Origin: Gemmiger formicilis
GTDB lineage: Bacteria > Bacillota > Clostridia > Oscillospirales > Ruminococcaceae
Reading direction: 5' to 3'
Length of the DNA: 64,000 nt
Assembly: GCF_900167555.1 (NCBI RefSeq)
Contig: NZ_FUYF01000001.1
Span: 186,001 to 250,000 of the forward strand
A model generated the notes under the pieces. That model did no database searches. It worked only from the letters and a program-made list of their open reading frames with translations, and was not told where the DNA came from. Below are positions 492 to 62,612 of this stretch, one piece after another (within the stretch, counting starts at the first letter, position 1; every line of letters begins with the position of its first letter). The position numbers and the translations under genes are program-made.

Positions 492-562
492 GTAGGTGCG
501 GATTCCATATCCGCCCGCAAGGCCGGCAGCCGTTGACGGGCGCATATAGAATGCGCCCCTAC
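492..562. repeat. GTAGGG modular palindromic repeat (pair)
   Basis: Left module starts GTAGG and has the core GGATTCCATATCC; right module is inverted, has the core GCGCATATAGAATGCGC and ends CCCCTAC. The two cores differ but each is self-complementary. It lies in the leader of the downstream XRE gene. Confidence 0.85.
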
Positions 563-596
563 GATTGCCATAAGGCTGCCAAGGAGGAGGCACACC

Positions 597-1583
597 ATGA
601 CATTTTCCGATAAGCTCATTGCTCTGCGCAAAAAGGCGGGCTGGTCGCAGGAGGAGCTGGCCGAGCGGCTAAACGTCAGCCGCCAGTCGGTCTCCAAGTG
701 GGAGAGCGCACAGTCGATGCCCGACATTGACAAAATTTTACAGTTGAGCAGTTTGTTCAGTGTGACGACGGACTGCCTTTTAAAAGACACGCAGGACGAC
801 ACGCAGCCTGCCGCGGCACAGACGCCCTCTCCCCTGCCCCGGGTGACGCTGGCGCAGGCGGAGGATTACCTGACCAAGGCACAGGCCAACGCGCCGCAGA
901 TGGCGCTGGCGACGGCGCTCTGCATCGTCAGCCCCATTCCGCTGCTGGCGCTGGGTACGGTGAGGGAGCTCGGGCTGCTTGGTTTGGCTGACGATCTGGC
1001 GGGCGGCTTGGGGATGATCGCGCTGGTGGTGCTGGTGGCTGTGGCTGTTGTGCTGTTTATGCAGTGCGGCGCGGCGGTGCGGGAATATGAGTTTCTGGAA
1101 AAGGAGCCCATCGAGACCGAGCACGGCGTGACAGCGCTGGTGAGGGAGCGCCGCGCCGCCTTTGCGCCGGAGTATGACCGGGCCAACCGCATTGGTGCGG
1201 CGCTCTGCATTCTGGCGGCAGTGCCCCTGTTTACGGCTGTGATGGTCGGTGTGTCGTTTTTGATGTCGATGTCCATCTGTCTGCTGTTGGTGCTGGTCGC
1301 CTGCGGTGTGTACGCCTTTGTGCGGGTGGGCACGGTGCAGGACGCCATGGATCGGCTGCTGGAGGACGGGGACTTTACCCGTGGGCACAAGGCCGTGAAA
1401 GGGCGGCTGACCGCGCTGACTGCGGCCTACTGGCTGGTGGTGGTTGCCATCTTCCTGTGGTACACCTTCGGCCCCAACGGCAACGGCCAGCCGCAGTACA
1501 GCTGGTTCATCTGGGCCATTGCGGGCGTGGTCTACGCCGCGTGTGTGGTTGCGGCAAAGGCGTTTGTGAGGAAAAAAGTGTAA
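597..1583 (+). CDS. XRE-family transcriptional regulator with C-terminal membrane domain
   Basis: 328 residues. Residues ~1-60 are a Cro/CI-type helix-turn-helix (LRKKAGWSQEELAERL, then NVSRQSVSKWE), the form common in Firmicutes regulators. Residues ~100-325 contain about five to six hydrophobic segments (around 100-125, 137-157, 205-245, 275-295, 303-325) separated by a charged cytoplasmic stretch. The protein therefore probably binds DNA while anchored in the membrane. AAGGAGGAGG lies 7 bases before the ATG and fixes the start. The signal it senses and its targets are not visible; there is no obvious target operon on the same strand. Confidence 0.85.
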   Translation: MTFSDKLIALRKKAGWSQEELAERLNVSRQSVSKWESAQSMPDIDKILQLSSLFSVTTDCLLKDTQDDTQPAAAQTPSPLPRVTLAQAEDYLTKAQANAPQMALATALCIVSPIPLLALGTVRELGLLGLADDLAGGLGMIALVVLVAVAVVLFMQCGAAVREYEFLEKEPIETEHGVTALVRERRAAFAPEYDRANRIGAALCILAAVPLFTAVMVGVSFLMSMSICLLLVLVACGVYAFVRVGTVQDAMDRLLEDGDFTRGHKAVKGRLTALTAAYWLVVVAIFLWYTFGPNGNGQPQYSWFIWAIAGVVYAACVVAAKAFVRKKV

Positions 1584-1625
1584 AGGCAACAGCCCCTGAC
1601 CGAGTGATGGTCAGGGGCTTGCCTT
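1583..1625 (+). terminator. Hairpin terminator after the XRE gene
   Basis: The stem AGCCCCTGACC / GGTCAGGGGCT is extended by AAGGCA / TGCCTT and begins at the stop codon. The U-tract is weak. Confidence 0.7.
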
Positions 1626-1635
1626 ATAGATAGCG

Positions 1636-1721
1636 GTAGGGGCCGGGCATGCCCGGCCCGCGGCTTTCCCGCAAGAGGTCATCTGCCGTACAGCTGCGGG
1701 CCGCATATATGCGACCTCTGC
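1636..1721. repeat. GTAGGG modular palindromic repeat, right module decayed
   Basis: Left module is GTAGGGG followed by the core CCGGGCATGCCCGG. The right module (GCGGGCCGCATATATGCG) has lost the usual CCCCTAC end. Confidence 0.75.
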
Positions 1722-1754
1722 AGGGCGTCTCCCTCTGGGGGGGGGACAATTTAT

Positions 1755-2537
1755 TCAAATCAGCCCAAAATGCGCCAGTGCCTTTGCAAGGCCGTCTGCG
1801 GTAATGTCGTCGGTGACATAATCCGCGACGGCCTTGGCGGCATCGCAGGCGTTGCCCATGGCGACGCCGATCCCGGCATATTCCAGCATCGTCACGTCGT
1901 TGCCGCCGTCACCAAAGGCGATGGACTGCTCCCGCGTCAGGCCCAGATGGGCCAGCGTGTGGGCCAGGCCGTTGGGCTTGCCGCCGCCCGCGGGTAGGAT
2001 ATCGCAAAAATCATCCTCCCAGCGCACAGCCAGGCAGCCGGGGCAGCGGCGCAGGAACTCGGCCTCCTTCTCCGGCGGCAGGAACGCGCTAAGCTGGTAA
2101 ATATCCTCGTGCTGGATCAGCGCGGCAACATCCCCGGCCCCCAGCTCCAGCTTTTTGGCAAAGTCGCGGCTCAAATCGTTGATAAGGTTGAACCGGCAGA
2201 AGTCCTTTCCTACAAAACCGACGGACAGCTGTTCTTTTTCAATGTACGGCAGCAGCGTTTGCAGCGATGCCGCCGGGATGTACTTGGTGTACAGCAGCTC
2301 GCCGTCGGCCAGATAGCAGTATTGGCCGTTCATCGTCACATAGCCGTCAAACGGGATGCCGTCCAGCGCGTGCAGGTACGGCAGGTGTACCGGCGGGCGG
2401 CCGGTAGCAATAAACGTTTTGACGCCGTTTTTGCGCAGCCGGGCCAGCGCGTCCACCGTTGAGGCGGGCAGGTGCGTGGCCTCAAAAGGAAGCAGCGTGC
2501 CGTCAATATCAAAAAATGCGGCCTTGATTTGTGTCAT
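1755..2537 (-). CDS. HAD-superfamily phosphatase, Cof type
   Basis: 260 residues, a predicted cytoplasmic phosphatase of small phosphorylated metabolites. Motif I is DIDGT (nucleophile D10, acid D12), motif II is the T45 region ATGRP, a conserved Lys lies near 187, and motif IV is GDGGND (209-214). The cap between residues ~80 and 190 is of the C2 type seen in Cof/YbjI proteins. AAGGAA precedes the ATG. It begins 11 bases after the gpsA stop and is probably the last gene of that transcription unit. The substrate cannot be read from the sequence. Confidence 0.88.
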   Translation of the reverse strand: MTQIKAAFFDIDGTLLPFEATHLPASTVDALARLRKNGVKTFIATGRPPVHLPYLHALDGIPFDGYVTMNGQYCYLADGELLYTKYIPAASLQTLLPYIEKEQLSVGFVGKDFCRFNLINDLSRDFAKKLELGAGDVAALIQHEDIYQLSAFLPPEKEAEFLRRCPGCLAVRWEDDFCDILPAGGGKPNGLAHTLAHLGLTREQSIAFGDGGNDVTMLEYAGIGVAMGNACDAAKAVADYVTDDITADGLAKALAHFGLI

Positions 2538-2548
2538 GGCGGTGTTCC

Positions 2549-3547
2549 TTATTCGCGCTTGAGGCTGCGGCCCATCAGCGCCATCAGCGCGCTGCGGGCC
2601 TCGAGCTTGCCGTCCAGAATGGCCTCCACAGCCTGGACGATGGGCATTTCGACCTTATACTGCTTGGCCAGGCGGCAGGCGGCGGGCAGTGCGTTGATGC
2701 CCTCAACGACCTGGCCGACCTCGGTCTTGGCCTCCTCCACCGACTTGCCGCGGCCAATCAGCATACCGGCGTGCAGGTTGCGGCTGTGCATACTCGTGCA
2801 GGTGACGATCAGGTCGCCCATACCGGACAGGCCCGCAAAGGTTTCGGCCTTGCAGCCCATGGCGATGCCCAGTCGGGACAGCTCGGCGTTGCCGCGGGTG
2901 ATGAGCGCGGCCTTGGCGTTGTCACCGTAGCCCAGGCCCAGCGCAATGCCGACAGCCAGCGCAATGACGTTCTTGACCGCACCGCCCAGCTCGGTGCCGC
3001 GGCGGTCATCGTTGGTGTAGACGCGGAAGGTCGGTGTGGTAAAGACCTTCTGCACGGCTTTGGCGGCGTCCTCGTCGGCACTGGCGGCCACGATGGCGGT
3101 GGGCATATCGCGGGCGACCTCCTCGGCGTGGGTCGGGCCGGACAGTGCCACAACGCGCGCTTTGCGCCCGGCCTTGGCAAGCTCATCCTCGATGATCTCG
3201 CTCATCGTCATCAGGGTCTTGTCCTCGACGCCCTTGGCGACGTCAACGATTAGCTGGCCCTCCGGGATGTGCGGCGCGGCCTTTTTTGCGGTGGCACGCA
3301 CAAACGGGGATGGCACGGCAAAGAGCAGGATGTCGCGGCCCGTGCAGGCCTCGGCAATGTCGGCGGTGTAGTGCATTGCGGCGGGCAGCTCCATACCGGG
3401 CAGGTTGGGGTGGCGGTGCGTGGTGCTTAAAGACTTCAGCTCGGCGGGGATGGCGCTCCATACGGTGACGTCGCGCCCGTTGGCGGCCAGCAGCCGCGCC
3501 AGCGCAATGCCCCAGGTGCCTGCACCGAATACTGCGATTTTTGTCAT
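2549..3547 (-). CDS. gpsA: NAD(P)H-dependent glycerol-3-phosphate dehydrogenase
   Basis: 332 residues. The enzyme reduces dihydroxyacetone phosphate to sn-glycerol 3-phosphate for phospholipid synthesis in the cytoplasm. The N-terminal nucleotide-binding loop is GAGTWG (8-13). Conserved active-site lysines are visible at K105 (VAKGVE) and K192 (AVKNVIA), and the C-terminal all-alpha domain has the usual GLSGMGDL and EG.NALP elements. Length is normal for the family. CAAGGAGA precedes the ATG. In many Firmicutes it follows plsY/der; here it is downstream of a phosphoesterase, with a repeat between them. Confidence 0.97.
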   Translation of the reverse strand: MTKIAVFGAGTWGIALARLLAANGRDVTVWSAIPAELKSLSTTHRHPNLPGMELPAAMHYTADIAEACTGRDILLFAVPSPFVRATAKKAAPHIPEGQLIVDVAKGVEDKTLMTMSEIIEDELAKAGRKARVVALSGPTHAEEVARDMPTAIVAASADEDAAKAVQKVFTTPTFRVYTNDDRRGTELGGAVKNVIALAVGIALGLGYGDNAKAALITRGNAELSRLGIAMGCKAETFAGLSGMGDLIVTCTSMHSRNLHAGMLIGRGKSVEEAKTEVGQVVEGINALPAACRLAKQYKVEMPIVQAVEAILDGKLEARSALMALMGRSLKRE

Positions 3548-3590
3548 GGGAATAGTTCTCCTTGTTTGATGAAGTTAGCCGTGCCGCTTG

Positions 3591-3677
3591 GTAGGGGCCG
3601 GACGTATCCGGCCCTCAGCGTGAAAGGCAGAAGAATGCCCACGGGAAGGCCGAGGGCGAGGCATGCCTCGCCCCTAC
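3591..3677. repeat. GTAGGG modular palindromic repeat that supplies a stop codon
   Basis: Left core CCGGACGTATCCGG (slightly imperfect), right core GCGAGGCATGCCTCGC ending CCCCTAC. Read on the - strand, the GTAGGGG end of the right module gives the TAG stop of the phosphoesterase gene (3674-3676). Confidence 0.85.
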
Positions 3678-4327
3678 AGGGCATTCCGCCCCAGCAGCGA
3701 AGCAAACAGCCGCGGGCGGGGCTTGGGGGCGGGGGCGTCCACGTCCAGATACACCCGCTCATAGCAATTGACGATGCGGGTCGCGCCGTACTGTTGCTCC
3801 CGCGGGATGGAGCAGCCGTAGTTCAGATGGATGTGCCCGTGCAGCATCAGTTGCGGATGGTAGCGGTCCAGCAGGACCGAAAACGCTGTAAAGCCGCGGT
3901 GCGGCAGGTCGGTCATATCGCCGTAGCCGTGCAGCGGCGCGTGGGTGACCAGTATGTCAATGCCGCCATGGCGGTCGATCTTGCCGCGCAGATGGTTGAT
4001 GCGCTTTTTCATCTCGGCCTCGGTAAACTGCCAGGCGCCGGTGCGGTAGCGGCAGCTGCCGCCCAGCCCGGCGATGCGCAGGCCGTTGTGTACGTACACG
4101 TCGTCATCCAGGCAGATGACGCCCTGCGGCGGGCGGGTGTCGTAGCTCTCGTCATGGTTGCCGTGTACGTACAAAAGCGGTACGGGTGCCATGGTGGCAA
4201 GGTATTCCAGATAATGGCGGCTCAAATCGCCGCAGGCAATGATGAGTTCGACGCCCTCGAGCTTGTCGGGGGTGAAGTAGTCCCAGAGGGCCTTGCACTC
4301 CTCGTCCGCAACGGCCAGAATCTTCAT
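3674..4327 (-). CDS. Calcineurin-like metallophosphoesterase
   Basis: 217 residues. Metallophosphoesterase motifs are present in order: GDLS (~33), GNHD (~56), TH (~128 region, VTHAPLHGYGD) and GHIH (~164). The first metal-binding motif, normally D-x-H at the N-terminus, reads AVADEE, so the histidine is absent. The start overlaps the upstream BMP-family gene by ATGA (4 bases), so the two are translationally coupled. The C-terminus ends on a TAG contributed by a repeat element. The substrate is unknown; members of this superfamily act on nucleotides, phosphoproteins or nucleic acids. Confidence 0.85.
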   Translation of the reverse strand: MKILAVADEECKALWDYFTPDKLEGVELIIACGDLSRHYLEYLATMAPVPLLYVHGNHDESYDTRPPQGVICLDDDVYVHNGLRIAGLGGSCRYRTGAWQFTEAEMKKRINHLRGKIDRHGGIDILVTHAPLHGYGDMTDLPHRGFTAFSVLLDRYHPQLMLHGHIHLNYGCSIPREQQYGATRIVNCYERVYLDVDAPAPKPRPRLFASLLGRNAL

Positions 4328-6291
4328 AGCTCGGCCTCCTTCTCGACGGGAAGAAGATCGCGGTGGATGCCCTGCATCCGGTACATCGGCTTCGAGACCT
4401 CGGCCAGCTCGTCATATTCGGGGATGTGGCCGTCAACGGCGTCGCACAACCAGTCCATGTGGGCGATCTGCTCCAGGTCCAGCCCGTGGCGTCCGCTGTT
4501 CTTGACGCTGCCGTCCTGCCCGGTGATCCGGCAGTGGAACGGGTCGATCATACCGGAGGTGACGCCGGTGCGCAGGATCTGCGCCAGATGGGTCACATCG
4601 GGCGGCAGCTCGCGGCTGAGCAGAACGTCCATGACGCCGCTGTTCATGCCCCACCAGTAGTTGACGGCGCGGCCATCGGTGCCGGACTTGTCCCGCACCC
4701 AGCCGCCGTTCAAAACGGTGCGGATGACGTTCTCATAGAACTGGCCCCAGTGCCAGAACGGCGTGGCCAGGTCCTGCAGCACGCCGCCCGGGCGCACCAG
4801 AAACGTGCCGAACTCTCGCTGCGGGCGGTTCGGCATCGGTGCGTCGCGGCCCGAGATGACCGTGATGCCCTTCTGGGTAAAGACGTGCAGCGGGTCAATC
4901 TGGTCGGGCAGGCAGGTCCATTGCAGGTCGATGCGGACGTTGGGGTTCGTCATCCGCGCGCCGAGCGCGAATGCGTTGATGTTGGCAGGCACGCCGAAGC
5001 TGGGGTAGTCGGCCACATAGCCGATGCGGTCCCCGCCCGCCATGGCACCGGCAATCGCGCCGGTGATGAACTTGGCCTCATACACGCGGGTGTAGTAGGT
5101 GCGGATGCTGGCGTAGGGCATCTCCATCGAGCAGTTCAGGATGTGTACCTGCGGGTGCCGGACGGCGGCGCGCAGGGACGCGCCTACCAGCTTGGGGCTG
5201 GTCGTAAAGACGACATCCGCACCGTCGGTGATGGCCTGCTCGACAAGGGCATCGGCGTTCTTGCCCGGGACGGCGTTGAAGTAGGCTGCCGTCTCGACCT
5301 TGCCCTCAAACACAGTGTCCAGCTGGGTACGGCCAAACTCATGCTGGCTTGTCCAGGAGCTGGTGCCGGGGGCGCGCTCATGCACAAAGGCAACCTTCAA
5401 ATGGCTGGGCGCGGTGTGCTTGCCGGGCAGGATAAAATCCAGCAGGCCGGTCTGCTTCGGGGCGGCGGGCTTGTCGCTGACCTGCACGGGGTCCGATTTC
5501 TGCAGGGCCAGCACATCGTCCCACAGGGCGTCGAGCTTTTCGCTCAGCTCGCTGGGACTTAAATTGGCCAGCTCCTCCTTGGTGTAGACGCGCAGCAGCA
5601 GCAGCAGCACGTCGCCGACGGTACACTGCAGCCGTGCGCCGCCGTGGGCCAGAAACGCCTTCTTGACCCAGTTGTACAGCGATAAGACCTCGGTTCGATC
5701 CTCGCCAGTCCACTTTTCGTCCGGCGCCTTGCCCAGTATTTTTTGCAGGCGGGCATAGCTGCCGGGCTTGGTGAAGGTCAGCAGATAGTTCTGCATGACC
5801 GGGTAAAAGTGCATGAACTCGTAGTACATCTGCACGGCGGGGTCGTCGCTGTACTGCGGCACGACGCGAGTGACATTGCCGGTGATGCTGCTGGCGTCAA
5901 AATACTTCAGCACGCTGACGCGCTTATTGCCCTCCTGCACGTAGAAGCGGCCCATGTACTCATAGCAGGTGATGGGGTCACGGATGCCCTCATCCAGATG
6001 GGACACGCACAGGTTGATCCACTTGGTGGCAAACTCGGTCTTGAGACCGAGCAGCGGCATAAAGTTGGACGCAAACGCCGCTGTGCGGCCCGAGGTCTTG
6101 GTACCAACGAGCAGCTCCAGCGGGATCTCTACCTGGCCGAGCGGGATCTGGTTCTCCACAGGGACGTTTTGCAGAATATCGTCCAATACGGGCAAAAACG
6201 GCGACTGCCCAGCGTTCATCTTCTCGCGGTAATCGCGCTGGCCCTGTCGAAGGGCTTTCTGGTAGCAATCGATTCCATCTGCACGGTTCAC
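4324..6291 (-). CDS. Cytoplasmic BMP-family (nucleoside-binding) protein with N-terminal ParB-like region
   Basis: About 655 residues. The C-terminal half resembles the Bmp/Med nucleoside-binding fold of ABC transporter lipoproteins (FVHERAPGTSSW, then a stretch around ADVVFTTSPKLV, GAIAGAMAGGDRIGYVADYP). There is no signal peptide or lipobox. The N-terminal part has IRDPITCYEYMGRFYV followed by EGNKRVSVLKYF, which resembles the ParB/Srx-type nuclease-like motif. I chose the GTG start at 6291 because AGGAGG lies 9 bases before it; the alternative TTG at 6309 would put that AGGAGG inside the coding region. It has its own promoter at 6334-6362 and is coupled to the phosphoesterase gene. The function is not known; an intracellular ligand sensor is my inference. 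Confidence 0.75.
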   Translation of the reverse strand: MNRADGIDCYQKALRQGQRDYREKMNAGQSPFLPVLDDILQNVPVENQIPLGQVEIPLELLVGTKTSGRTAAFASNFMPLLGLKTEFATKWINLCVSHLDEGIRDPITCYEYMGRFYVQEGNKRVSVLKYFDASSITGNVTRVVPQYSDDPAVQMYYEFMHFYPVMQNYLLTFTKPGSYARLQKILGKAPDEKWTGEDRTEVLSLYNWVKKAFLAHGGARLQCTVGDVLLLLLRVYTKEELANLSPSELSEKLDALWDDVLALQKSDPVQVSDKPAAPKQTGLLDFILPGKHTAPSHLKVAFVHERAPGTSSWTSQHEFGRTQLDTVFEGKVETAAYFNAVPGKNADALVEQAITDGADVVFTTSPKLVGASLRAAVRHPQVHILNCSMEMPYASIRTYYTRVYEAKFITGAIAGAMAGGDRIGYVADYPSFGVPANINAFALGARMTNPNVRIDLQWTCLPDQIDPLHVFTQKGITVISGRDAPMPNRPQREFGTFLVRPGGVLQDLATPFWHWGQFYENVIRTVLNGGWVRDKSGTDGRAVNYWWGMNSGVMDVLLSRELPPDVTHLAQILRTGVTSGMIDPFHCRITGQDGSVKNSGRHGLDLEQIAHMDWLCDAVDGHIPEYDELAEVSKPMYRMQGIHRDLLPVEKEAEL

Positions 6292-6333
6292 GACCCATCG
6301 CCTCCTCAAAACTTATACATTAGCTACAAAATT

Positions 6334-6362
6334 ATTATAGCACATCTGTGCGGAATATACAA
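6334..6362 (-). promoter_or_regulatory. Sigma-A promoter of the BMP/phosphoesterase operon
   Basis: On the - strand: TTGTAT, a 17-bp spacer, TATAAT, with an extended -10 (TGC before TATAAT). The -10 is at 6334-6339 and the -35 at 6357-6362. Confidence 0.75.
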
Positions 6363-6374
6363 AGAATTTTAAAA

Positions 6375-6576
6375 GGCTTCCCCATCGGGGGAAGCTGTCA
6401 CCGAAGGTGACTGATGAGGGCTGTACCTGCCGATATTGCCCATGAACGGGTTATGATGGCACACTCGCCCCTCATCCGGCCCTGCGGGGCCACCTTCAGT
6501 CTACGCGCTAAGAGCCGCCTCCGGCGGTTGCGCTCCGACACGCGCCTGCGGGCGCAGCCCCCCCCAGGGGGAAGGC
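6375..6576. repeat. Family B palindromic element (diverged copy)
   Basis: Starts GGCTTCCCC..GGGGGAAG, contains CTGATGAGGG and CGCCCCTCATCCGGCCCTG, and ends in a GGGGGAAGGC hairpin arm. This copy carries extra sequence before the last hairpin. It abuts the stop codon of the CmpB-like gene. Confidence 0.75.
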
Positions 6577-7875: not shown

Positions 7876-7915
7876 AGGGGGCTCTCCTGTAAGTGAGAAA
7901 ATTATCGGGTGGAAT

Positions 7916-8064
7916 GGCTTCCCCCAAGGGGGAAGCTGTCAGCGGCCCCGCCCGCTGACTGATGAGGGGAAAGCCTTGCGGATATTGCCCGTAAATGGGT
8001 GGCAGAGGCAGACTCGCCCCTCATCCGGCCCTGCGGGGCCACCTTCCCCCCCAGGGGGGAAGAC
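7916..8064. repeat. Family B palindromic element
   Basis: Full copy, ~149 bp: GGCTTCCCCC..GGGGGAAG hairpin, inner hairpin GTCAGCGG..CCGCTGAC, then GATGAGGGG pairing with CCCCTCATC, and an end hairpin CTTCCCCCC..GGGGGGAAG. It ends two bases from the queH stop codon. Confidence 0.85.
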
Positions 8065-8065
8065 T

Positions 8066-8686: not shown

Positions 8687-8701
8687 GGGTAGTGACCTCG
8701 T

Positions 8702-17007: not shown

Positions 17008-17093
17008 GTAGGGGCCGGACATGTCCGGCCCGCAGCCTTCCCGCAAGCATCCGCTTTCTATACACATCCGGGCCGGGCATGCCCGGCCCCTAC
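17008..17093. repeat. GTAGGG modular palindromic repeat (pair)
   Basis: Left core CCGGACATGTCCGG, right core CCGGGCATGCCCGG. The cores differ at symmetrical positions (A/T versus G/C), keeping the pairing. Confidence 0.88.
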
Positions 17094-19218: not shown

Positions 19219-19246
19219 GTAGGGGCCGGGCATGCCCGGCCCGCAT
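19219..19246. repeat. GTAGGG repeat, single module
   Basis: GTAGGGG followed by the core CCGGGCATGCCCGG. No matching right module is present. Confidence 0.75.
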
Positions 19247-25112: not shown

Positions 25113-25190
25113 GTAGGGAGGCGTCTTGACGCCTCCGGGCCGTTAGCGGCGGTGGTCAGGCTCCGCGGAGGGGTCAAGACCCCTCCCTAC
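25113..25190. repeat. GTAGGG modular palindromic repeat (pair)
   Basis: Left core GGAGGCGTCTTGACGCCTCC; right core, read in reverse, GGAGGGGTCTTGACCCCTCC. The difference at two symmetrical positions keeps the stem. Confidence 0.9.
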
Positions 25191-25973: not shown

Positions 25974-26003
25974 GTAGGGGCGCATTCTATATGCGCCCGC
26001 AAG
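25974..26003. repeat. GTAGGG repeat, single module
   Basis: GTAGGGG then GCGCATTCTATATGCGC. It lies between ecfT and truA. Confidence 0.75.
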
Positions 26004-27773: not shown

Positions 27774-27988
27774 AATAAAAAATAATAAATAAGAAATAAT
27801 AAAGATTGTGGAGTTTTTGCCGAAAGGCAAAAACAAAATCTGTAGGGGCGGATTCCATATCCGCCCGCGGCATTCCCGGGAGCTGCACGGGCGCATATAG
27901 AATGCGCCCCTACAGGTGTTGAGAAATTTTTGAGCGGCCACAGGCCGCGATCCACCGCATTTATTATTTATTATTTTTTATTTATTAT
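27774..27988. repeat. AT-rich inverted-repeat-bounded element between ecfA1 and ecfA2
   Basis: Two AT-only arms in inverse orientation (about 27774-27804 and 27959-27988, made of TAATAAATA-type units) enclose a GTTTTTGCC/GGCAAAAAC hairpin and a GTAGGG repeat pair (27842-27913). The right arm runs into the ecfA1 stop codon. The base composition is unlike the surrounding GC-rich DNA. Confidence 0.6.
27842..27913. repeat. GTAGGG modular palindromic repeat (pair)
   Basis: Left core GGATTCCATATCC, right core GCGCATATAGAATGCGC, ending CCCCTAC. It is the same module combination as at 492-562. Confidence 0.9.
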
Positions 27989-32559: not shown

Positions 32560-32651
32560 GTAGGGCGGGGTGCCCTCACCCCGCCGCAGGCTTCCGCAAT
32601 AGACCGTAAGCGGAGTGGCAGCAACGGCGGCATGAGGGCATGCCGCCCTAC
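32560..32651. repeat. GTAGGG modular palindromic repeat (pair)
   Basis: Left module GTAGGGCGGGGTGCCC followed by TCACCCCGCC; right module GGCGGCATGAGGGCATGCCGCC ends CCTAC (the right core has a longer loop). Confidence 0.75.
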
Positions 32652-36695: not shown

Positions 36696-36773
36696 GTAGG
36701 GGCAGGGGCGCAGTACGCCCGGCCCTGCGGCAGTCGTTCAGCTCCCGGGTCGATGATGAGCATCGACCCCTAC
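36696..36773. repeat. GTAGGG modular palindromic repeat (pair)
   Basis: Left core CAGGGGCGCAGTACGCCCGG plus CCCTG; right core GGGTCGATGATGAGCATCGACC ending CCTAC. Together with the MITE and promoter it fills the 445-base space between the exporter and the tRNA. Confidence 0.75.
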
Positions 36774-36849: not shown

Positions 36850-36925
36850 TGGTGCGCGGTACAGGACTCGAACCTGTGACCTCCTGCACGTCAAGCAGAT
36901 GCTCTACCAGCTGAGCTAACCGCGC
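36850..36925 (-). tRNA. tRNA-Val (anticodon GAC)
   Basis: 76 nt with the acceptor stem GCGCGGT/ACCGCGC, D-arm AGCTCAGCTGGTAGAGC, anticodon loop TTGACGT (GAC reads GUC), T-arm ACAGG-TTCGAGT-CCTGT and an encoded CCA end. All four arms fold normally. It is followed by a strong terminator. Confidence 0.96.
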
Positions 36926-38498: not shown

Positions 38499-38602
38499 GT
38501 AGGGGCGAGCATTGCTCGCCCGTGCCTGTTTGCCTTGGAAGAAACTTTCCCGGAAAATGCGTTGCTGCGGTAAGTTGGCGGGCGACCAATGGTCGCCCCT
38601 AC
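38499..38602. repeat. GTAGGG modular palindromic repeat (pair)
   Basis: Left core GCGAGCATTGCTCGC, right core GCGACCAATGGTCGC ending CCCCTAC. A mini family B hairpin (CTTCCC..GGGAAGG, ~38643-38662) follows. Confidence 0.88.
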
Positions 38603-45964: not shown

Positions 45965-45990
45965 GTAGGGGCCGGGCATGCCCGGCCCGG
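45965..45990. repeat. GTAGGG repeat, single module
   Basis: GTAGGGG with the core CCGGGCATGCCCGG, downstream of murA. Confidence 0.75.
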
Positions 45991-47328: not shown

Positions 47329-47357
47329 GTAGGGGCCGCATATAGGCGGCCCGCAGC
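47329..47357. repeat. GTAGGG repeat, single module
   Basis: GTAGGGGCCGCATATAGGCGGCCC; the core pairing is imperfect and the right module has decayed. Confidence 0.6.
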
Positions 47358-53195: not shown

Positions 53196-53272
53196 GTAGG
53201 GGAGGGATTTATCCCGCCCGGAATGTTTGCGTGGCCGGAAACCCTCACGGAGGGGTCAAGACCCCTCCCTAC
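53196..53272. repeat. GTAGGG modular palindromic repeat (pair)
   Basis: Left core GGGATTTATCCCGCCC; right core, read in reverse, GGAGGGGTCTTGACCCCTCC. Confidence 0.88.
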
Positions 53273-53295: not shown

Positions 53296-53372
53296 GTAGG
53301 GAGCGGTCTTGACCGCTCCGGGGAAGTGTGCGGCTGCCATCCACTCCACGGGAGGGATAAATCCTCCCCTAC
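53296..53372. repeat. GTAGGG modular palindromic repeat (pair)
   Basis: Left core GGAGCGGTCTTGACCGCTCC, right core GGGAGGGATAAATCCTCCC. It is 23 bases from the previous pair. With the terminator at 53381 these elements fill the space before the nucleotidyltransferase gene. Confidence 0.88.
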
Positions 53373-54375: not shown

Positions 54376-54454
54376 GTAGGGGAGGGATTCATCCCTCCCG
54401 GGTATTCAGCGGCTGCCGCGGCGTACCTGCGGAGCGGTCAAGACCGCTCCCTAC
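54376..54454. repeat. GTAGGG modular palindromic repeat (pair)
   Basis: Left core GGGAGGGATTCATCCCTCCC; right core, in reverse, GGAGCGGTCTTGACCGCTCC. Confidence 0.9.
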
Positions 54455-54477
54455 AAAGCACCCGTAAACGTCATTCT

Positions 54478-54553
54478 GTAGGGAGGGGTCTTGACCCCTC
54501 CGGGACGTGTGCCGCGTCGCTAAGTCCACGGGAGGGATGAATCCCTCCCCTAC
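54478..54553. repeat. GTAGGG modular palindromic repeat (pair)
   Basis: Left core GGAGGGGTCTTGACCCCTCC, right core GGGAGGGATGAATCCCTCCC ending CCTAC. Confidence 0.9.
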
Positions 54554-54673: not shown

Positions 54674-54682
54674 TGCTATAAT
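54674..54682 (+). promoter_or_regulatory. Extended -10 promoter of the patatin gene
   Basis: TGCTATAAT with no good -35 hexamer, as usual for extended -10 promoters. Confidence 0.55.
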
Positions 54683-54716
54683 GAATAAAACTACAAAACA
54701 GGAGGGCTTTTTTCCG

Positions 54717-55901: not shown

Positions 55902-55960
55902 AAAGGCTTCCCCCTTGGAGCCCCGCGCGTGTATGGCAGAGGAGCGCCCGCCGTAAAGCT

Positions 55961-55986
55961 GCGGGCCGCACATGTGCGGCCCCTAC
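55961..55986. repeat. GTAGGG repeat, right module
   Basis: Core CCGCACATGTGCGG ending CCCCTAC. A decayed family B end (CCCCTCATCCGACCCTGC) lies at ~56026-56070. Confidence 0.75.
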
Positions 55987-56088
55987 CGGGCGGTAAGCCT
56001 TTAACGGGTGTCTGCGGCGAACCCGCCCCTCATCCGACCCTGCGGGAGCCCATCCCGGAGGGGCCAAGAAGAAAAAAGGAGGCATCCT

Positions 56089-57648: not shown

Positions 57649-57652
57649 CGCT

Positions 57653-57738
57653 GTAGGGGCCGGGCATGCCCGGCCCGCAGGCTTCCCATAAGCAGGGCGA
57701 TTTCGCGAGGTGCAGGGCCGCACATGTGCGGCCCCTAC
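57653..57738. repeat. GTAGGG modular palindromic repeat (pair)
   Basis: Left core CCGGGCATGCCCGG, right core CCGCACATGTGCGG ending CCCCTAC; it starts 4 bases after the upstream stop codon. Confidence 0.9.
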
Positions 57739-57747
57739 CGGCAGCTT

Positions 57748-57824
57748 GTGGGGGAGGCATTCATGCCTCCCGTGTACCTACCGGCAGCACCAAACGCCCC
57801 GGGAGGGATGAATCCCTCCCCTAC
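57748..57824. repeat. GTAGGG modular palindromic repeat (pair)
   Basis: Left module GTGGGGGAGGCATTCATGCC plus TCCC (first bases changed); right core GGGAGGGATGAATCCCTCCC ending CCTAC. Confidence 0.8.
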
Positions 57825-57840
57825 TACTTAAAAAATGAAA

Positions 57841-57868
57841 ATGCCCGCCGTGTTTCCACGGCGGGCAT
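57841..57868 (-). terminator. Terminator of rpsT
   Basis: ATGCCCGCCGTG pairs perfectly over 12 bp with CACGGCGGGCAT across a 4-nt loop; T-rich sequence follows on the - strand. Confidence 0.88.
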
Positions 57869-57883
57869 TGTTCATGCGATCAA

Positions 57884-58150
57884 TTACTGAGCGGCAGCCT
57901 TGTTGGCGCGCTTAGCCATGCGGCTGATCTTGCGGGCAGCGGTGTTCTTATGGATAACACCCTTGCTCTTAGCAGAGTCGATGGCAGAGACAGCAACCTT
58001 AACGACGGTCTCCTTGTCAGCAGCATTGCTGTCGATGGCAGCGTTTGCCTTCTTGACCACTGTTTTCAGGTTGGACTTGACGACCTTGTTGTGCAGAGCC
58101 TCTTTCTTGGCCTGAACAACACGATCCTTCTGAGATTTAATATTAGGCAT
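57884..58150 (-). CDS. rpsT: 30S ribosomal protein S20
   Basis: 88 residues. A basic primary rRNA-binding protein of the small subunit. The sequence begins MPNIKSQKDRVVQAKKE and ends with the SRMAKRANKAAAQ helix, typical of bS20. AGGAGGTGGAA precedes the ATG at 58150. It is divergent from spoIIP. In most Firmicutes gpr lies between rpsT and spoIIP; here it does not. Confidence 0.97.
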   Translation of the reverse strand: MPNIKSQKDRVVQAKKEALHNKVVKSNLKTVVKKANAAIDSNAADKETVVKVAVSAIDSAKSKGVIHKNTAARKISRMAKRANKAAAQ

Positions 58151-58188
58151 TCGTTCCACCTCCTTGGTTCCCCATAACAGTACAAGTT

Positions 58189-58217
58189 ATCCTACCACAC
58201 TTTTTGCAAAGTTGCAA
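58189..58217 (-). promoter_or_regulatory. Promoter of rpsT
   Basis: On the - strand: TTGCAA, 17-bp spacer, TAGGAT. Confidence 0.65.
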
Positions 58218-58237
58218 GGGCTTTTTGAAAAAAACTT

Positions 58238-58265
58238 CATAGAAACCAAAAAAATCGCATAAAAT
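58238..58265 (+). promoter_or_regulatory. Sigma-E-like promoter of spoIIP
   Basis: TCATAGA, 14 bases, CATAAAAT, compared with the Bacillus sigma-E pattern of an ATA-containing -35 and CATANNNT -10 at about this spacing. No sigma-A hexamers fit as well. Confidence 0.4.
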
Positions 58266-58288
58266 TCTGGTACAAGGGGGTGTGTGCC

Positions 58289-59419
58289 ATGCAAAAGCTG
58301 CGCCGGTGGGCGGCGGCTGCACTGTGCGGGGCCGCATTTGCGGGCAGTGCGACGGCGGTTCTGGCCGCGTGTGCGGTCTGCCCCGGGCGGGCGTGGATCG
58401 TGCGCGGGGCGCTGTTTTTGCAGGACCCCGCGGCGGCTGCGGCCATCGCCTGGCCAGCGGATGCCGCCCGGGCCGCCTACAAGCCCCAGAAGCCGGACCG
58501 CCGCCCCACGCCCGTGCCCACGGCGACGCCCTCCCCGGCTCCGACAGCTGCGGCAACGCCCACGCCGGAGCCGTCCCCCGTTTCCACGCCGCTGCCCAGC
58601 GCCGCGCCGGAGCTGGACGACGCGGGCCGCATCCGCAGCGTGACACTCAGGCAGGGCAGCGGCGACGGTTATGTGGCACTGGCCGCAGGCAGCATCCGAA
58701 ACAGCACCGAACACACCGACGCTGACCTGCGCGCCGCCGTGACGACGCAAAATTTACCGTTTGCCGTTGAAAAGAATAGTGCCCTGCCGCAGGTGCTCAT
58801 CATGCACACCCATGCCACCGAGAGCTACCAGACCTGGCCGGATCCCGTGTTTGACCCCGGCTACACGGCCCGCAGCAAAAGCACGGCGCTGAATATGTGT
58901 GCCGTCGGAGAGAAAATGGCGCAGGTGCTCAACGCGGCGGGCATCCGCACGCTGCACGACGAAACGCTCTACGACGCGCCCGGCTACACTGACAGCTATA
59001 AGCGCAGCCGCGCGGGCGTGCAGACGTATCTGGAGCGCTACCCTTCTATAAAGGTCGTGCTGGATGTCCACCGCGATGCCATCGAGGACAGCGACGGCAC
59101 GCGGGTCAAGCCCGTGTGCGAGATCGACGGCGAGAGCACGGCGCAGGTCATGGTCATTGCCGGGTGCGGCAACGGCAGCAGCATTGCCCTGCCTAACTGG
59201 CGGCTCAATCTGCGTTTTGCCGCCGAATGGGAGGCCGCTATGGAAAGTGCCTACCCGGGCCTGACCCGCCCCGTGCTGTGCGGGTATCGGTTTTACAATC
59301 AGGATTTAACGACAGGCAGTCTTTTAATAGAGATCGGCGGCCACGCGAACACGCTGGACGAGGCCCTCCGCGCCGGAGAGTACGCCGCCAAGGCGCTGGC
59401 GGCGGTGCTGGGAGGGTAA
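58289..59419 (+). CDS. spoIIP: Stage II sporulation protein P
   Basis: 376 residues. SpoIIP is the amidase/endopeptidase that digests peptidoglycan during engulfment, working with SpoIID and SpoIIM. An N-terminal anchor (LRRWAAAALCGAAFAGSATAV) precedes a Pro/Thr/Ala-rich linker (~75-115) and the amidase_3-like domain. Zinc and catalytic motifs are visible: MHTHATESY (~172), VLDVHRDAI (~258) and LIEIGGHANTL (~350). The ATG at 58289 follows AAGGGGG. Together with dpaAB it points to a sporulation pathway. Confidence 0.93.
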   Translation: MQKLRRWAAAALCGAAFAGSATAVLAACAVCPGRAWIVRGALFLQDPAAAAAIAWPADAARAAYKPQKPDRRPTPVPTATPSPAPTAAATPTPEPSPVSTPLPSAAPELDDAGRIRSVTLRQGSGDGYVALAAGSIRNSTEHTDADLRAAVTTQNLPFAVEKNSALPQVLIMHTHATESYQTWPDPVFDPGYTARSKSTALNMCAVGEKMAQVLNAAGIRTLHDETLYDAPGYTDSYKRSRAGVQTYLERYPSIKVVLDVHRDAIEDSDGTRVKPVCEIDGESTAQVMVIAGCGNGSSIALPNWRLNLRFAAEWEAAMESAYPGLTRPVLCGYRFYNQDLTTGSLLIEIGGHANTLDEALRAGEYAAKALAAVLGG

Positions 59420-59454
59420 ATCTCAAAATCTCTTATTACAGTTTTAATCAAGGG

Positions 59455-59526
59455 GCGGGATTCATCCCTCCCGGGCAGCTTGCGCCGCCGCACACTCCCA
59501 CGGGCGGATATGGAATCCGCCCCTAC
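59455..59526. repeat. GTAGGG modular palindromic repeat (pair)
   Basis: Left core GGGATTCATCCC (first bases changed to AAGGGGC); right core GGCGGATATGGAATCCGCC ending CCCTAC. A further loose module (GGTAGGAATCGGCGTCCCC) follows to ~59560. Confidence 0.75.
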
Positions 59527-59596
59527 GGTAGGAATCGGCGTCCCCGACGCCCCGCAGACCTTCATAGCATCGCAAACGTAACATCATCGCCGCGCG

Positions 59597-59682
59597 GTAG
59601 GGGCCGGACATGTCCGGCCCTGCACCTTCCCATAAACGCCTGCCCGCGGGATACCTCCGGGCCGGGCATGCCCGGCCCCTAC
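59597..59682. repeat. GTAGGG modular palindromic repeat (pair)
   Basis: Left core CCGGACATGTCCGG, right core CCGGGCATGCCCGG ending CCCCTAC; the same pair as 17008-17093. Confidence 0.92.
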
Positions 59683-59719
59683 AACCCCTGCAACCCTGCA
59701 ACTCTGCAAATATCGGCTC

Positions 59720-59748
59720 TTTACTTTTTATAAAATACCTGTTACAAT
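59720..59748 (+). promoter_or_regulatory. Promoter of asnS-mutY
   Basis: TTTACT, 17-bp spacer, TACAAT. Confidence 0.6.
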
Positions 59749-59783
59749 AGGAACATTCATATATAAAGAGGAGTGGACTATCC

Positions 59784-61169
59784 ATGCAGAGAACGGAACT
59801 TGCATCGCTGTACAAGGCCACCCCTGCAGACGGCACCAAGGTCACCGTCTGCGGCTGGGCCAAGACTGTGCGCGATTCTAAAAATATCGGCTTTATCTCG
59901 CTGTCCGACGGCAGCTGCTATAAGCCCGTCCAGATCGTTTTTCAGGCCGACAAGCTCGCCAACTATGCCGAGATCGCCAAGTGCGGTCTGTACACGAGCT
60001 TTGAGGTCACCGGCAGCGTTGTTGTGACCCCGGGTGCCAAGCAGCCCTTTGAGATCAATGCGGATGAAATCACCGTGCTCGGCCCCTGCGGCGGCGACTA
60101 TCCGCTGCAGAAAAAGAAGATGGGCATGGACTACCTGCGCACCATGACCCACCTGCGCCCCCGCACCAACACCTTCAACGCTGCGTTCCGCGTGCGCGGC
60201 CAGGCGGCGTTCGCCCTGCACCAGTTCTTCCATGAGCACGGCTTTACCTACGTGCATACGCCGATTTTCACAGGCTCTGACTGTGAAGGTGCCGGTGAGA
60301 TGTTCCAAGTGACCACCCTTGACCTCAACGATATCCCCCGCAACGACGAGGGCGGCGTTGACTACACGAAGGACTTCTTCAAGCGTCCTGTCAACCTGAC
60401 CGTTTCCGGCCAGCTGGAGGCCGAGGCCATGGCCATGGCGCTGGGCAACGTCTACACGTTCGGCCCCACCTTCCGCGCCGAGAAGAGCTACGACACCCGC
60501 CATGCCGCCGAGTTCTGGATGATCGAGCCCGAGATGGCCTTCGCCGACCTGAACACCTATCTCGAGACCGCCGAGGCCATGACCCGCTACGTCATCCGCT
60601 ACCTGCTGGACAACTGCCCCGACGAGCTGGCCTTCTTCAACCAGTTCTTTGACAAGGGCCTGATCGAGCGCCTCGAGCTGGTCGCATCCAGCGACTTTGC
60701 CCGCGTGACCTACACCGACGCCATCGAGCTGCTGAAGAAGAACAACGACAACTTCCAGTATAAAGTCGAGTGGGGCACCGACCTGCAGACCGAGCACGAG
60801 CGCTACCTGACCGAGCAGATCTTCAAGAAGCCCGTGTTCGTCACCGACTACCCGAAGGAAATCAAGGCATTCTACATGCGCCAGAACGAGGACGGCAAGA
60901 CCGTGGCCGCCGCCGATATGCTGGTTCCCGGCATCGGTGAGCTGATCGGCGGCTCTCAGCGTGAGGAGCGCCTCGATGTGCTGGAAGCCCGCATGAAGGA
61001 GCTGGGCCTGAACACCGCCGACTACGACTGGTATCTCGACCTGCGCCGCTACGGCAGCGTCAAGCATGCGGGCTACGGACTGGGCTTTGAGCGCCTGCTG
61101 ATGTACGTCACCGGCATCCCCAACATCCGCGACGTCATCCCCTTCCCCCGTACCTGCGGTGGTTTTTGA
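59784..61169 (+). CDS. asnS: Asparagine--tRNA ligase
   Basis: 461 residues. A class IIb aminoacyl-tRNA synthetase that charges tRNA-Asn. The N-terminal OB-fold (~1-110) has [19 protein letters not shown]. Motif 1 is [15 protein letters not shown] (~153), motif 2 is [22 protein letters not shown] (~232) with FRAE, and motif 3 is [12 protein letters not shown] (~432), where GFER binds ATP. Length is normal. AGAGGAG precedes the ATG. No T-box leader is visible. Codon use is strongly biased, as expected of a highly expressed gene. Confidence 0.97.
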
Positions 61170-62197
61170 TGCAGCCCATTGCCGCACCGCTGCTGCAATG
61201 GTTTGACGCAAACAAGAGGCTCCTGCCTTTCCGGCAGGAGCCTTCTGCGTACCATATCTGGGTCAGCGAGATCATGCTCCAACAGACCCGCGTGGCAGCG
61301 GCCATCCCCTATTATGAACGCTTTATCGCGGCTTTGCCGGACCCCGCCGCGCTGGCGGCCTGTGAGCCGGACGCCCTGCGCAAGCTGTGGCAGGGGCTGG
61401 GCTACTACAACCGCGTCAACAATATGCAGAAGGCTGCCCGCATCGTCTGCGAGCAGTACGGCGGCGACCTGCCCGCCGACTACGACGCCCTGCGCAGTCT
61501 GCCGGGCATCGGTGACTACACGGCGGGCGCGGTGGCCAGCATTGCGTTTGGCATCCCCGTCCCCGCGGTGGACGGCAACGTCCTGCGCGTTTTTGCGCGG
61601 CTGTACAACGACGACGCGGACGTCATGGCCCCGGCAACGAAGAAAGCCTTTACCGTGCGGGTGCTGGACCAGATGCCCAAGGCCACGCCCGGCCCCTACA
61701 ACGAGGCCCTGATGGAGCTGGGTGCGCTGGTCTGCATCCCCGGCACGCCCCACTGTGAAGAATGCCCGCTGGCCGATTTGTGCCGGGGCTATGCGGCTGG
61801 CCGGGCGGACCAGCTGCCTGTGAAGCCCGCGCCCAAGGCCAAGGGCAAGGTGCCCGTGACGGTGGCGTTGATTGAAAGTGAGCAGGGATTGCTTTTGCAG
61901 CGCCGCCCCGCACGGGGACTGCTGGCCGGATTGTGGCAGCCCGCAGCGTGGGAAAAAGCGCTGACGCGGGACGAGCTGACCGCCGCACTGGCGGGCATCG
62001 GTGTGCAGGCCGCGCTGGACGAGCCTCTGCCCCCCGCAAAGCACGTATTTACGCACAAGATTTGGGAACTCGGCGGCTGGAAGGGCACCGCCCCTGCCTG
62101 TGCTCTGCCCGACGGGTATGTCTGGGCCGCGCCGGAGGATTTGGCAGAGGTGTACCCCGTGCCGAATGCGTTCGGGGCGTATGTGAAGGCGAAGTGA
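61169..62197 (+). CDS. mutY: A/G-specific adenine glycosylase
   Basis: 342 residues. MutY removes adenine mispaired with 8-oxoguanine. The catalytic Glu is in SEIMLQQTRV (~36), the helix-hairpin-helix is LPGIGDYTAGA (~112) with the Asp in VDGNVLRVF (~138), and the [4Fe-4S] cysteines follow C-x6-C-x2-C-x5-C (~193-209). The C-terminal ~120 residues form the MutT-like recognition domain (LQRRPARGLLAGLWQP). The ATG shares one base with the asnS stop (TGATG), so the two are translationally coupled, an unusual pairing. Confidence 0.95.
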   Translation: MQPIAAPLLQWFDANKRLLPFRQEPSAYHIWVSEIMLQQTRVAAAIPYYERFIAALPDPAALAACEPDALRKLWQGLGYYNRVNNMQKAARIVCEQYGGDLPADYDALRSLPGIGDYTAGAVASIAFGIPVPAVDGNVLRVFARLYNDDADVMAPATKKAFTVRVLDQMPKATPGPYNEALMELGALVCIPGTPHCEECPLADLCRGYAAGRADQLPVKPAPKAKGKVPVTVALIESEQGLLLQRRPARGLLAGLWQPAAWEKALTRDELTAALAGIGVQAALDEPLPPAKHVFTHKIWELGGWKGTAPACALPDGYVWAAPEDLAEVYPVPNAFGAYVKAK

Positions 62198-62223
62198 GGG
62201 TGAGTTTCTCATGGCCATGAACG

Positions 62224-62300
62224 GCCAGAGCCCCTCAGACCTCGCGGGCTCGGCCAGCTCCCCACTTCGTGGGGCGCCTTTTTTCGCGGGCTCTGCTCGT
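62224..62300. repeat. Family C repeat, second copy
   Basis: Shares CTCGGCCAGCTCCCC and ACTTCGTGGGG with 29757-29850; the right part is changed. Confidence 0.55.
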
Positions 62301-62349
62301 TTGCCGCTATGTATGACCTCCCGTGGGCTGTGCGCCAGCCACACACCTC

Positions 62350-62550
62350 CCCGGAGCGGTCAAGACCGCTCCCTACAAACCGGCCGTGAACGGCATTCCG
62401 TAGGGAGGGGTCTTGACCCCTCCGCGCCCGTGTTCGCTTAGCGCCCGTAAAAAGGCAATAGAGCCGTAGGGGCCGCACATGTGCGGCCCGCAGCCTGCCC
62501 GTCAGCACCCGTTCCAGGAAAGCCGCGGGCGGCATATATGCCGCCCCTAC
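62350..62550. repeat. Cluster of GTAGGG modules
   Basis: Right module with GGAGCGGTCAAGACCGCTCC ending CCTAC at 62374; left module GGAGGGGTCTTGACCCCTCC from 62398; then a pair 62466-62550 with the cores CCGCACATGTGCGG and GGCGGCATATATGCCGCC. Confidence 0.88.
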
Positions 62551-62587
62551 AAGCCATCCCGCAAACGCCCGCCTGCCTTATACGTCC

Positions 62588-62612
62588 CGGGTCGGGCATG
62601 CCCGGCCCCTAC
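62588..62612. repeat. GTAGGG repeat, right module
   Basis: GTCGGGCATGCCCGG ending CCCCTAC. With the family C copy and the cluster above it fills the 62.2-62.6 kb gap; I see no gene there. Confidence 0.75.

What the first reader, a model, noticed from the sequence alone, without database searches (positions are those of the whole stretch)
492..62612. Modular GTAGGG palindromic repeats with compensatory changes in the core
More than twenty intergenic elements share one plan: GTAGGG(G), a self-complementary core of ~14-20 bp, CCC, a spacer of 15-50 bp, then a second module in inverse orientation ending CCCCTAC. Cores vary between copies in a paired way. GGAGGGGTCTTGACCCCTCC, GGAGCGGTCTTGACCGCTCC and GGAGGCGTCTTGACGCCTCC differ only at mirrored positions. 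CCGGGCATGCCCGG, CCGGACATGTCCGG and CCGCACATGTGCGG do likewise, as do GGATTCCATATCC and GCATTCTATATGC. Left and right modules of one element often carry different cores, and the same module types recur in new combinations (492 and 27842; 17008 and 59597), so modules seem exchangeable. Conserved ends with covarying stems suggest selection on a hairpin, or hairpin-templated correction by a trans-acting enzyme, as proposed for REP/BIME elements. I know of no name for this family.
Basis: seen in the sequence. Interest (0 to 1): 0.75.

Follow-up and report, generated by a model that had tools for sequence, protein, structure and literature searches.

The report
REPINs and their self-tagged RAYT transposases
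The GTAGGG hairpin repeats scattered between genes here are REP/REPIN elements, a known kind of tiny mobile DNA, and the transposase genes that go with them carry copies of the same kind of hairpin inside their own coding sequence, which may tie each enzyme to its repeat.

Summary
The window has 36 GTAGGG-tagged modules; about 13 inverted pairs have the tags outside. Stem changes are compensatory beyond shuffled controls. The family has a name: GTAG-tagged REPs, paired as REPINs/BIMEs. Each carries, in frame, an inverted REP pair around its catalytic HuH segment: class B (TCTTGA) in one, class D (CATTG) in the other; both classes are dispersed in the window. In-frame REPs in this subclass were reported in 2018 (PMC6006769) and judged to matter little. 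Added here: (i) internal REPs show no synonymous change in 8 of 9 gene comparisons, with up to 43% divergence outside; (ii) class-B internal stems match dispersed stems in 8 of 8 genomes, three stem types; (iii) in one relative, both REPs, the HuH segment and the next helix differ as one block. Against simple matching, that relative's internal core is in none of its 15 dispersed class-D REPs. I read this as a REP system whose enzyme gene carries its own recognition hairpin. Mobilisation by RAYT is inferred, not shown.

The parts
492..562 (.). REPIN, class G: GGATTCCATATCC (+, tag GTAGGT) and GCATTCTATATGC (-)
1636..1659 (+). single REP module, class A (CCGGGCATGCCCGG)
3654..3677 (-). single REP module, class A variant (CGAGGCATGCCTCG)
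17008..17093 (.). REPIN, class A/A (CCGGACATGTCCGG and CCGGGCATGCCCGG), 86 bp
19219..19242 (+). single REP module, class A
25113..25190 (.). REPIN, class B/B (GAGGCGTCTTGACGCCTC and GAGGGGTCTTGACCCCTC), 78 bp
25974..25998 (+). single REP module, class G
27842..27913 (.). REPIN, class G/G, 72 bp, same two cores as 492-562
32560..32651 (.). REPIN, class C/C (CGGGGTGCCCTCACCCCG and CGGCATGCCCTCATGCCG), 92 bp
38499..38602 (.). REPIN, class D/D (GCGAGCATTGCTCGC and GCGACCATTGGTCGC), 104 bp; the same two cores in the same left-right order as inside the genome's RAYT-D gene
45965..45988 (+). single REP module, class A
47329..47352 (+). single REP module, class A (ATAT loop), one unpaired position
53196..53272 (.). 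REPIN, class E/B, 77 bp
53296..53319 (+). REP module, class B (GAGCGGTCTTGACCGCTC)
54376..54454 (.). REPIN, class E/B, 79 bp
54478..54553 (.). REPIN, class B/E, 76 bp
55963..55986 (-). single REP module, class A (CCGCACATGTGCGG)
57653..57738 (.). REPIN, class A/A, 86 bp; the G221 interval lacks it, G210 has other modules there
57748..57824 (.). REPIN, class E/E, 77 bp, left tag GTGG
59502..59526 (-). single REP module, class G
59597..59682 (.). REPIN, class A/A, 86 bp, same core pair as 17008-17093; not in the shorter matching intervals of G210 and G221
62353..62423 (.). tag-inside pair, class B (62376 - and 62400 +); absent from the matching intervals of G210 and G221
62466..62550 (.). class A pair (CCGCACATGTGCGG +; GCGGCATATATGCCGC -)
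62589..62612 (-). REP module, class A with one mismatched pair

Best explanation
The elements are GTAG-tagged REP hairpins, about half of them arranged as REPINs (two inverted REPs and a spacer). Seven stem-loop classes (A, B with E, C, D, F, G, H) coexist in this Clostridia-like genome. Classes B/E and D go with two resident RAYT genes, most like group 4 (subclass 2.4). The likely cycle: when the DNA is single-stranded the hairpin folds, the cognate RAYT (an HuH/Tyr nuclease) binds tag and stem-loop, cuts and rejoins, and copies of the REPIN spread. Stem changes are mostly kept only when paired, because the folded single strand is the substrate. Both resident RAYT genes also carry their own REP pair in frame, in inverted orientation, in two loops on either side of the HuH segment. 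These look conserved at the DNA level, so enzyme and target can be inherited and exchanged together. Shown here by sequence: the elements, the pairing, class-to-RAYT linkage, in-frame copies, lack of synonymous change, one block replacement, presence/absence between species. Inferred: folding in vivo, cutting, transposition, and what the internal copies are for.
For: Tag and compensatory stems. RAYT identity: the A1 profile matches 4er8 TnpArep at 5.3e-11, with W, Q, H, R, Y, N and P of the catalytic region aligned. The model of relative L034 (mean pLDDT 80.9) has 4er8 as its best PDB fold match (E 1.5e-07, TM 0.59). Internal tagged palindromes in 31 of 79 Y1/RAYT frames; synonymous-codon shuffles give a mean of 1.98 and at most 7 genes in 200 shuffles. 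Inverted pairs in both loops in 13 genes, one class per gene in 13 of 13. Class-B stem match in 8 of 8: AG/CT in G000 and G221, CG/CG in G206, G214, G216, G220, G222, AA/TT in G033. A RAYT of the B clade is in 9 of 11 genus genomes with 5 or more class-B REPs and in 0 of 20 others (Fisher 2.7e-6; threshold chosen after seeing the counts). With REP-coded residues masked, REP class needs 4 changes on the RAYT tree (least possible 4; shuffled 12.7; 0 of 200). Synonymous changes in REP codons 0 of 15 against 37 of 74 outside (L112/L113), 0 of 14 against 43 of 130 (L108/L109), 0 of 16 against 34 of 105 (L125/L126). Presence/absence in relatives.
Against: Five classes (A, C, F, G, H) have no RAYT found in this genome. 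G210 and G200 have 5 and 10 class-B REPs but no B-clade RAYT was found. In G221 the RAYT-D internal core CACAGTGTG is in none of the 15 dispersed class-D REPs. B-clade RAYTs L116 and L118 have no internal REP. REP codons are not frozen: L113/L123 differ at 5 of 45 REP bases (11.1%, against 20.7% outside) and L125/L126 at 2 of 51, all in codons whose amino acid changed; L108/L110, whose cores differ, has 1 synonymous change in 8. The best NCBIfam RAYT model scores 62.4 bits for RAYT-B, under its cut-off of 80. The tree behind the class test is a quick one with many weak branches. No cutting, transposition or expression data.
Confidence: 0.85

Rival explanations
1. The in-frame REPs are tolerated passengers: REPINs jumped into permissive loops of the transposase gene and stay because they do no harm (the view in PMC6006769).
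For: The loops have low confidence (pLDDT block means 62-68) in the model of L034. REPs are absent (L116, L118) or expanded (L123 holds five) within one clade.
Against: No synonymous change in REP codons in 8 of 9 comparisons, while 2 of 89 to 47 of 79 outside codons changed. Corresponding loops and same orientation in 13 genes of three classes, B, D and F (correspondence by alignment A1 for three of them and by the flanking peptides for the rest). L110/L115 keep the core (0 of 13 against 47 of 79) though no exact dispersed copy was found in either genome.
Confidence: 0.3
2. Internal REPs look unchanged because gene conversion with the many dispersed copies overwrites them, not because of selection.
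For: Internal and dispersed stems match for class B in 8 of 8 genomes.
Against: G221 and G202 keep CACAGTGTG inside the RAYT without exact dispersed copies elsewhere (exact pattern only, draft genomes).
Confidence: 0.3
3. Transcription terminators or RNA hairpins stabilising mRNA ends.
For: GC-rich hairpins, mostly outside genes (62 of 157 overlap ORFs in a crude gene model with coding fraction 0.878). No Rfam family matches them at its gathering score.
Against: No excess between convergent genes or deficit between divergent ones: 40 co-directional, 30 convergent, 24 divergent against 102, 64, 50 intergenic gaps. It would not explain the tag, the RAYT link or the in-frame copies.
Confidence: 0.07
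4. Miniature inverted-repeat elements of a DDE transposon, or palindromic sites for a double-strand DNA-binding protein.
For: Palindromic modules; inverted ends.
Against: A one-sided GTAG tag marks a strand, and the classes track HuH-type RAYTs. No DDE transposase search was made.
Confidence: 0.03

Closest known systems
GTAG-tagged REPs (Di Nocera et al. 2013, PMC3733652; abstract and sections 5, 14, 15, 16 read)
   Same: GTAG at one end, stem mostly 6-13 bp, complementary stem variation within families, head-head dimers mostly 20-100 bp apart, heterodimers common
   Different: Main text has no word beginning Firmicutes, Clostridi, Ruminococc, Faecalibacterium or Oscillibacter (figures and supplements not seen). 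There REPs favour convergent and co-directional gaps; here no such bias.
REPINs (Bertels and Rainey 2011, PMC3116915; abstract read)
   Same: Inverted REP doublets with spacer, over-represented, linked to specific RAYTs
   Different: Here seven classes in one genome, five without a RAYT found in it
TnpAREP subclass 2.4 / RAYT group 4 (PMC6006769, 2018; section 12 read, other passages by find)
   Same: WQ and Y motifs close to those listed; long REPs with three G-C pairs at the stem base; double-foot REPs; REPs inserted in frame in tnpAREP
   Different: The paper places insertions generally between HuH and Y and expects little impact. Here two sites on either side of HuH, inverted, mostly without synonymous change, and for class B matching dispersed REPs. 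Taxa named there: Cyanobacteria, Bacteroidetes and various phyla.
E. coli TnpAREP (4er8) and TnpAREP/REP recognition (PMC8266576; abstract and part 1 of the discussion read)
   Same: HuH and catalytic Tyr region; in E. coli the helix called alpha3 contacts the REP
   Different: 19% identity in the fold match; E. coli REPs have a bulge, most classes here do not

Membership tests
GTAG-tagged REP | Unpaired GTAG at one end of a short palindrome | tested here: met
GTAG-tagged REP | High copy, mainly extragenic | tested here: met
   230 exact class-A and 114 exact class-B copies in this genome; 95 of 157 outside ORFs by a crude gene model against 12% non-coding
REPIN | REP doublets as inverted repeats with a spacer | tested here: met
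   104 of 197 modules lie in 52 tag-outside pairs
REPIN | Disseminates within genomes | tested here: inconclusive
   Presence/absence between related species at matching intervals; no transposition seen
REPIN | Associated with a specific RAYT | tested here: met
   Class B/E: internal copies plus genome counts. Class D: internal copies in G000 and G210 match dispersed ones, G221 does not. Classes C and F: only as internal copies in RAYTs of relatives; class A: only as flanks of L133 in G210. Classes G and H: none found
RAYT / TnpAREP subclass 2.4 | NH[IFV]H, WQ and YIxNNP motifs (list from PMC6006769) | tested here: inconclusive
   By eye: RAYT-D has NHVH, WQ, YIDTNP; RAYT-B has DHLH, WQ, YIDNNP. 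Each departs at one motif. The paper's own subclass profiles were not available
RAYT / TnpAREP subclass 2.4 | In-frame REP insertion in the gene | tested here: met
RAYT / TnpAREP | Homology to TnpAREP with HuH and catalytic Tyr region | tested here: met
RAYT / TnpAREP | Single-strand REP cutting and rejoining | not testable with these tools
   needs biochemistry

The most novel reading that the evidence does not exclude
These RAYT genes are self-labelled: each keeps, by selection on DNA, an inverted pair of its own recognition hairpins around the segment that encodes catalysis and hairpin binding. This REP-bounded cassette can be exchanged as one piece, as in G221, which changes enzyme specificity and its template REP together and can found a new REP family.
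Probability: 0.35. Interest if true: 0.75.

Novelty: new variant of a known kind. Interest (0 to 1): 0.5.

Why it matters
How REP families are born and how they stay matched to their transposases is, as far as I know, open. Internal REPs that match dispersed ones, resist synonymous change and move as a block with the recognition helix would give a concrete, testable answer. The genus also offers several RAYT/REP pairs that differ by a few paired bases, which suits specificity assays.

Tried and rejected
REPINs as internal-deletion derivatives of the RAYT gene: 59 spacers compared with RAYT segments gave only short chance-level matches in the part of the output I printed (best E 0.006, 13 nt), so rejected. 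PF01797 as the RAYT detector: it found two Y1 genes and missed RAYT-D, which the protein and profile searches found. Rfam: one tRNA only, at gathering scores. Class counts for C, E and F used a palindrome filter or overlapped other classes, so only A, B, D and G are quoted. Terminator role: no context bias (crude greedy ORF model, many spurious ORFs). A catalogue in G183 (54 kb) and G105 (100 kb) showed few REPs (3 and 4 tagged palindromes against 2 and 0 in the control), so the internal REPs there could not be matched well; G183 has two further exact copies. G033 was sampled (81 kb), not searched whole. Tandem repeats in the C39 stretch: nothing relevant found. Rows dropped before the count: L013 and L027 (same genes as L125 and L108), L025, L026, L042, L045, L072 (fragments or broken), L047 and L129 (frame under 200 nt). 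Of the 31 hits, L056 and L064 have the palindrome near the 5' end of a stop-to-stop frame, perhaps before the true start. Short RAYT fragments (in G054, G221, G223) were not put on the tree. The two stray class-B anchors and the stray class-D anchor were kept. The eight rows are the eight distinct class-A stems.
Full report
What is there. The window is G000:C68:186001-250000 of an unnamed 3.24-Mb draft genome in 92 contigs. GTAGGG is in threefold excess (59 against 18.25). Over half of the sites head a palindrome: G-T-A-G, then a stem of 8-10 pairs, a loop of 2-5 bases and the return arm (36 modules in the window). In 450 kb (window, C68:1-186000, C40:1-200000) there are 157 such tagged palindromes against 4 in the reversed control. 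A catalogue by loop type holds 197 modules: A 65, B/E 35, C 26, G 26, H 19, F 15, D 11 (H was found by a pattern, not by pairing). Exact counts in the whole genome are 230 for class A and 114 for class B, with 0 in the reversed-pattern control.

Compensatory change. Sites chosen by tag and loop alone are mostly paired (57 of 61, 21 of 29, 10 of 13, 26 of 28 fully paired for A, B, D, G). In those four classes 60 cells changed on both sides and stayed Watson-Crick against 18 changed on one side (after dropping two class-B and one class-D anchor with few pairs); these are copies, not events. On distinct stems, the paired count exceeds all 1000 shuffles for A, B and D and not for G; both-sided changes exceed all shuffles for A and B only. 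The 8-sequence class-A test agrees (0 of 500 shuffles as high for paired cells and for covariation score; sliding the arms destroys it).

Pairs and mosaics. Of 197 modules 104 lie in 52 tag-outside pairs; 38 of 52 are within one merged class (shuffled mean 10.4, maximum 21 in 2000) and only 5 have identical cores. Heterodimers are thus the rule, as described for several GTAG families (PMC3733652, section 14). Class B modules pair with class E ones, three times in the window. Seven composite elements share A, a similar spacer and B; the third module, next to B, is H in five and C in two (in one of the H cases it lies a little further off). That is the clearest case of module exchange, on seven elements. 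In the six intervals of window 53.1-62.6 kb that I aligned with G210 and G221 (one without G210), several A/A elements and a tag-inside B pair are missing or replaced; boundaries are blurred by divergence, so no target site was defined.

The enzyme. Two RAYT genes of one subfamily are in the genome: RAYT-B (C39:29135-29629) and RAYT-D (C68:167693-168181, 18 kb before the window). The same profile matched 17 of 31 genus genomes. It matches solved TnpArep 4er8 (5.3e-11). The AlphaFold model of the relative L034 (mean pLDDT 80.9) puts HuH on strand 93-100, followed by a loop and helix 113-128, and has 4er8 as best fold match. A further Y1 gene of another type, L001, is present.

REPs inside the enzyme gene. 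RAYT-B reads GTAGGGAGGGGTCTTGACCCCTCC as V-G-R-G-L-D-P-S before HuH and the reverse complement as A-E-G-S-R-P-L-P-T after it. RAYT-D has GCGAGCATTGCTCGC before and GCGACCATTGGTCGC after, the same two cores in the same order as the window REPIN 38499-38602. Over 79 Y1/RAYT frames from this and other phyla, 31 hold a tagged palindrome; codon shuffles that keep the protein give 1.98 on average and at most 7. Within the window's family and two near Clostridia the count is 22 of 43 (rows). Thirteen genes have the inverted pair at both loops (L016, L108, L109, L110, L112, L113, L114, L115, L117, L125, L126, L130, L135), one class per gene. PMC6006769 (2018) reported REPs inserted in frame in subclass 2.4 and judged them peripheral, so the existence of such copies is known.

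What is added. First, REP codons show no synonymous change in 8 of 9 comparisons (0 of 8 to 0 of 16), while codons outside change, for example 37 of 74 in L112/L113 (p 1e-4) and 47 of 79 in L110/L115 (p 3e-5); for L108/L109 and L125/L126 p is 0.011 and 0.005. The comparisons share genes and are not all independent; L120/L122 is too close to tell (2 of 89 outside); L108/L110, whose cores differ, has 1 of 8. Changes inside REPs in codons whose amino acid changed do occur: 5 of 45 bases in L113/L123 (20.7% outside), 2 of 51 in L125/L126, 1 of 42 in L110/L115. Second, class-B stems agree between gene and genome in 8 of 8: AG/CT (G000 114 copies, G221 18), CG/CG (G206 37, G214 7, G216 21, G220 19, G222 51), AA/TT (G033, 5 in 81 kb that do not include the gene). 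Counts other than G033's include the copies in and beside the RAYT genes; in G214 that leaves 3 elsewhere. Related species share stems, so independent changes are few. Third, in G221 RAYT-D is a mosaic: 84% identical to G000 up to the first REP, 60% from there to the WQ motif, 89% after it, whereas G210 is 85, 85 and 88%. The divergent part holds both REPs, HuH and the helix after it. The core there, CACAGTGTG, is only in the gene (2 of 17 sites); the 15 dispersed ones have other cores. I take this as enzyme and label replaced together before any spread; it also shows that internal and dispersed cores need not match.

Class and enzyme. On a quick tree built with REP-coded residues masked, REP class needs 4 changes, the least possible, against 12.7 shuffled (0 of 200); near-copies help such a result. 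B-clade RAYTs occur in 9 of 11 genus genomes with 5 or more class-B REPs and in 0 of 20 others (p 2.7e-6, threshold set after seeing the counts); short RAYT fragments in G054 and G223 were not placed. Class A is confined to G000 (230), G210 (126), G221 (7) and G211 (1) of 31 genomes; the RAYT L133 in G210 sits between two class-A REPs, tags outside, and G221 has a 38-residue fragment 61% like it. No close relative of L133 was found in G000 (its two matches are RAYT-D, 44%, and RAYT-B, 36%), whose draft may lack it.

Mechanism and limits. TnpAREP biochemistry (PMC8266576, abstract and part of the discussion) shows single-strand REP recognition and cutting; I transfer that by homology. To look for earlier reports I used paper searches; none listed a paper that by title or abstract is on these repeats in Clostridia, but subscription papers are mostly not held. 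Bertels et al. 2017, which defines RAYT group 4, I know only from PMC6006769. Of PMC2817692 I saw two passages.

Noticed in passing
L123 (G216:C138, about 1160-1440): A RAYT-B frame of 351 codons, stop to stop, holds five in-frame REPs, a tandem expansion alternating TCTTGA and ATTTAT/ATTCAT cores.
   Followed up: partly
G000:C40:12462, 50959, 51156, 70985, 75988, 135509, 139048: Composite A-spacer-B-(H or C) elements with the third module exchanged.
   Followed up: partly
G000:C39:16648-17481: Class A and B modules recur at steps of 257, 257 and 229 bp, as in a tandem array (positions).
   Followed up: no
G000:C39:26663-26690 and C42:70709-70736: 'Double-foot' class-A palindromes with GTAG at both ends.
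   Followed up: no
window 36696-36773: A class-F hairpin (GGGTCGATGCTCATCATCGACCC) lies 80 bases from the tRNA gene at 36853-36925.
   Followed up: no
L036, L037, L038, L040, L043, L046, L049: Relatives in records labelled Cyclobacterium, Planktophila, Bacteroidales, Bacteroidetes, Aquiflexum and Flavobacterium carry tagged palindromes in frame; in the five whose rows were in view (not L046, L049) they are double-foot and lie after HuH.
   Followed up: partly
L001 (G000:C53:8270-8608): Another kind of Y1 transposase gene; NCBIfam RAYT model at 60.2 bits, under its cut-off. Not scanned for internal REPs.
   Followed up: no
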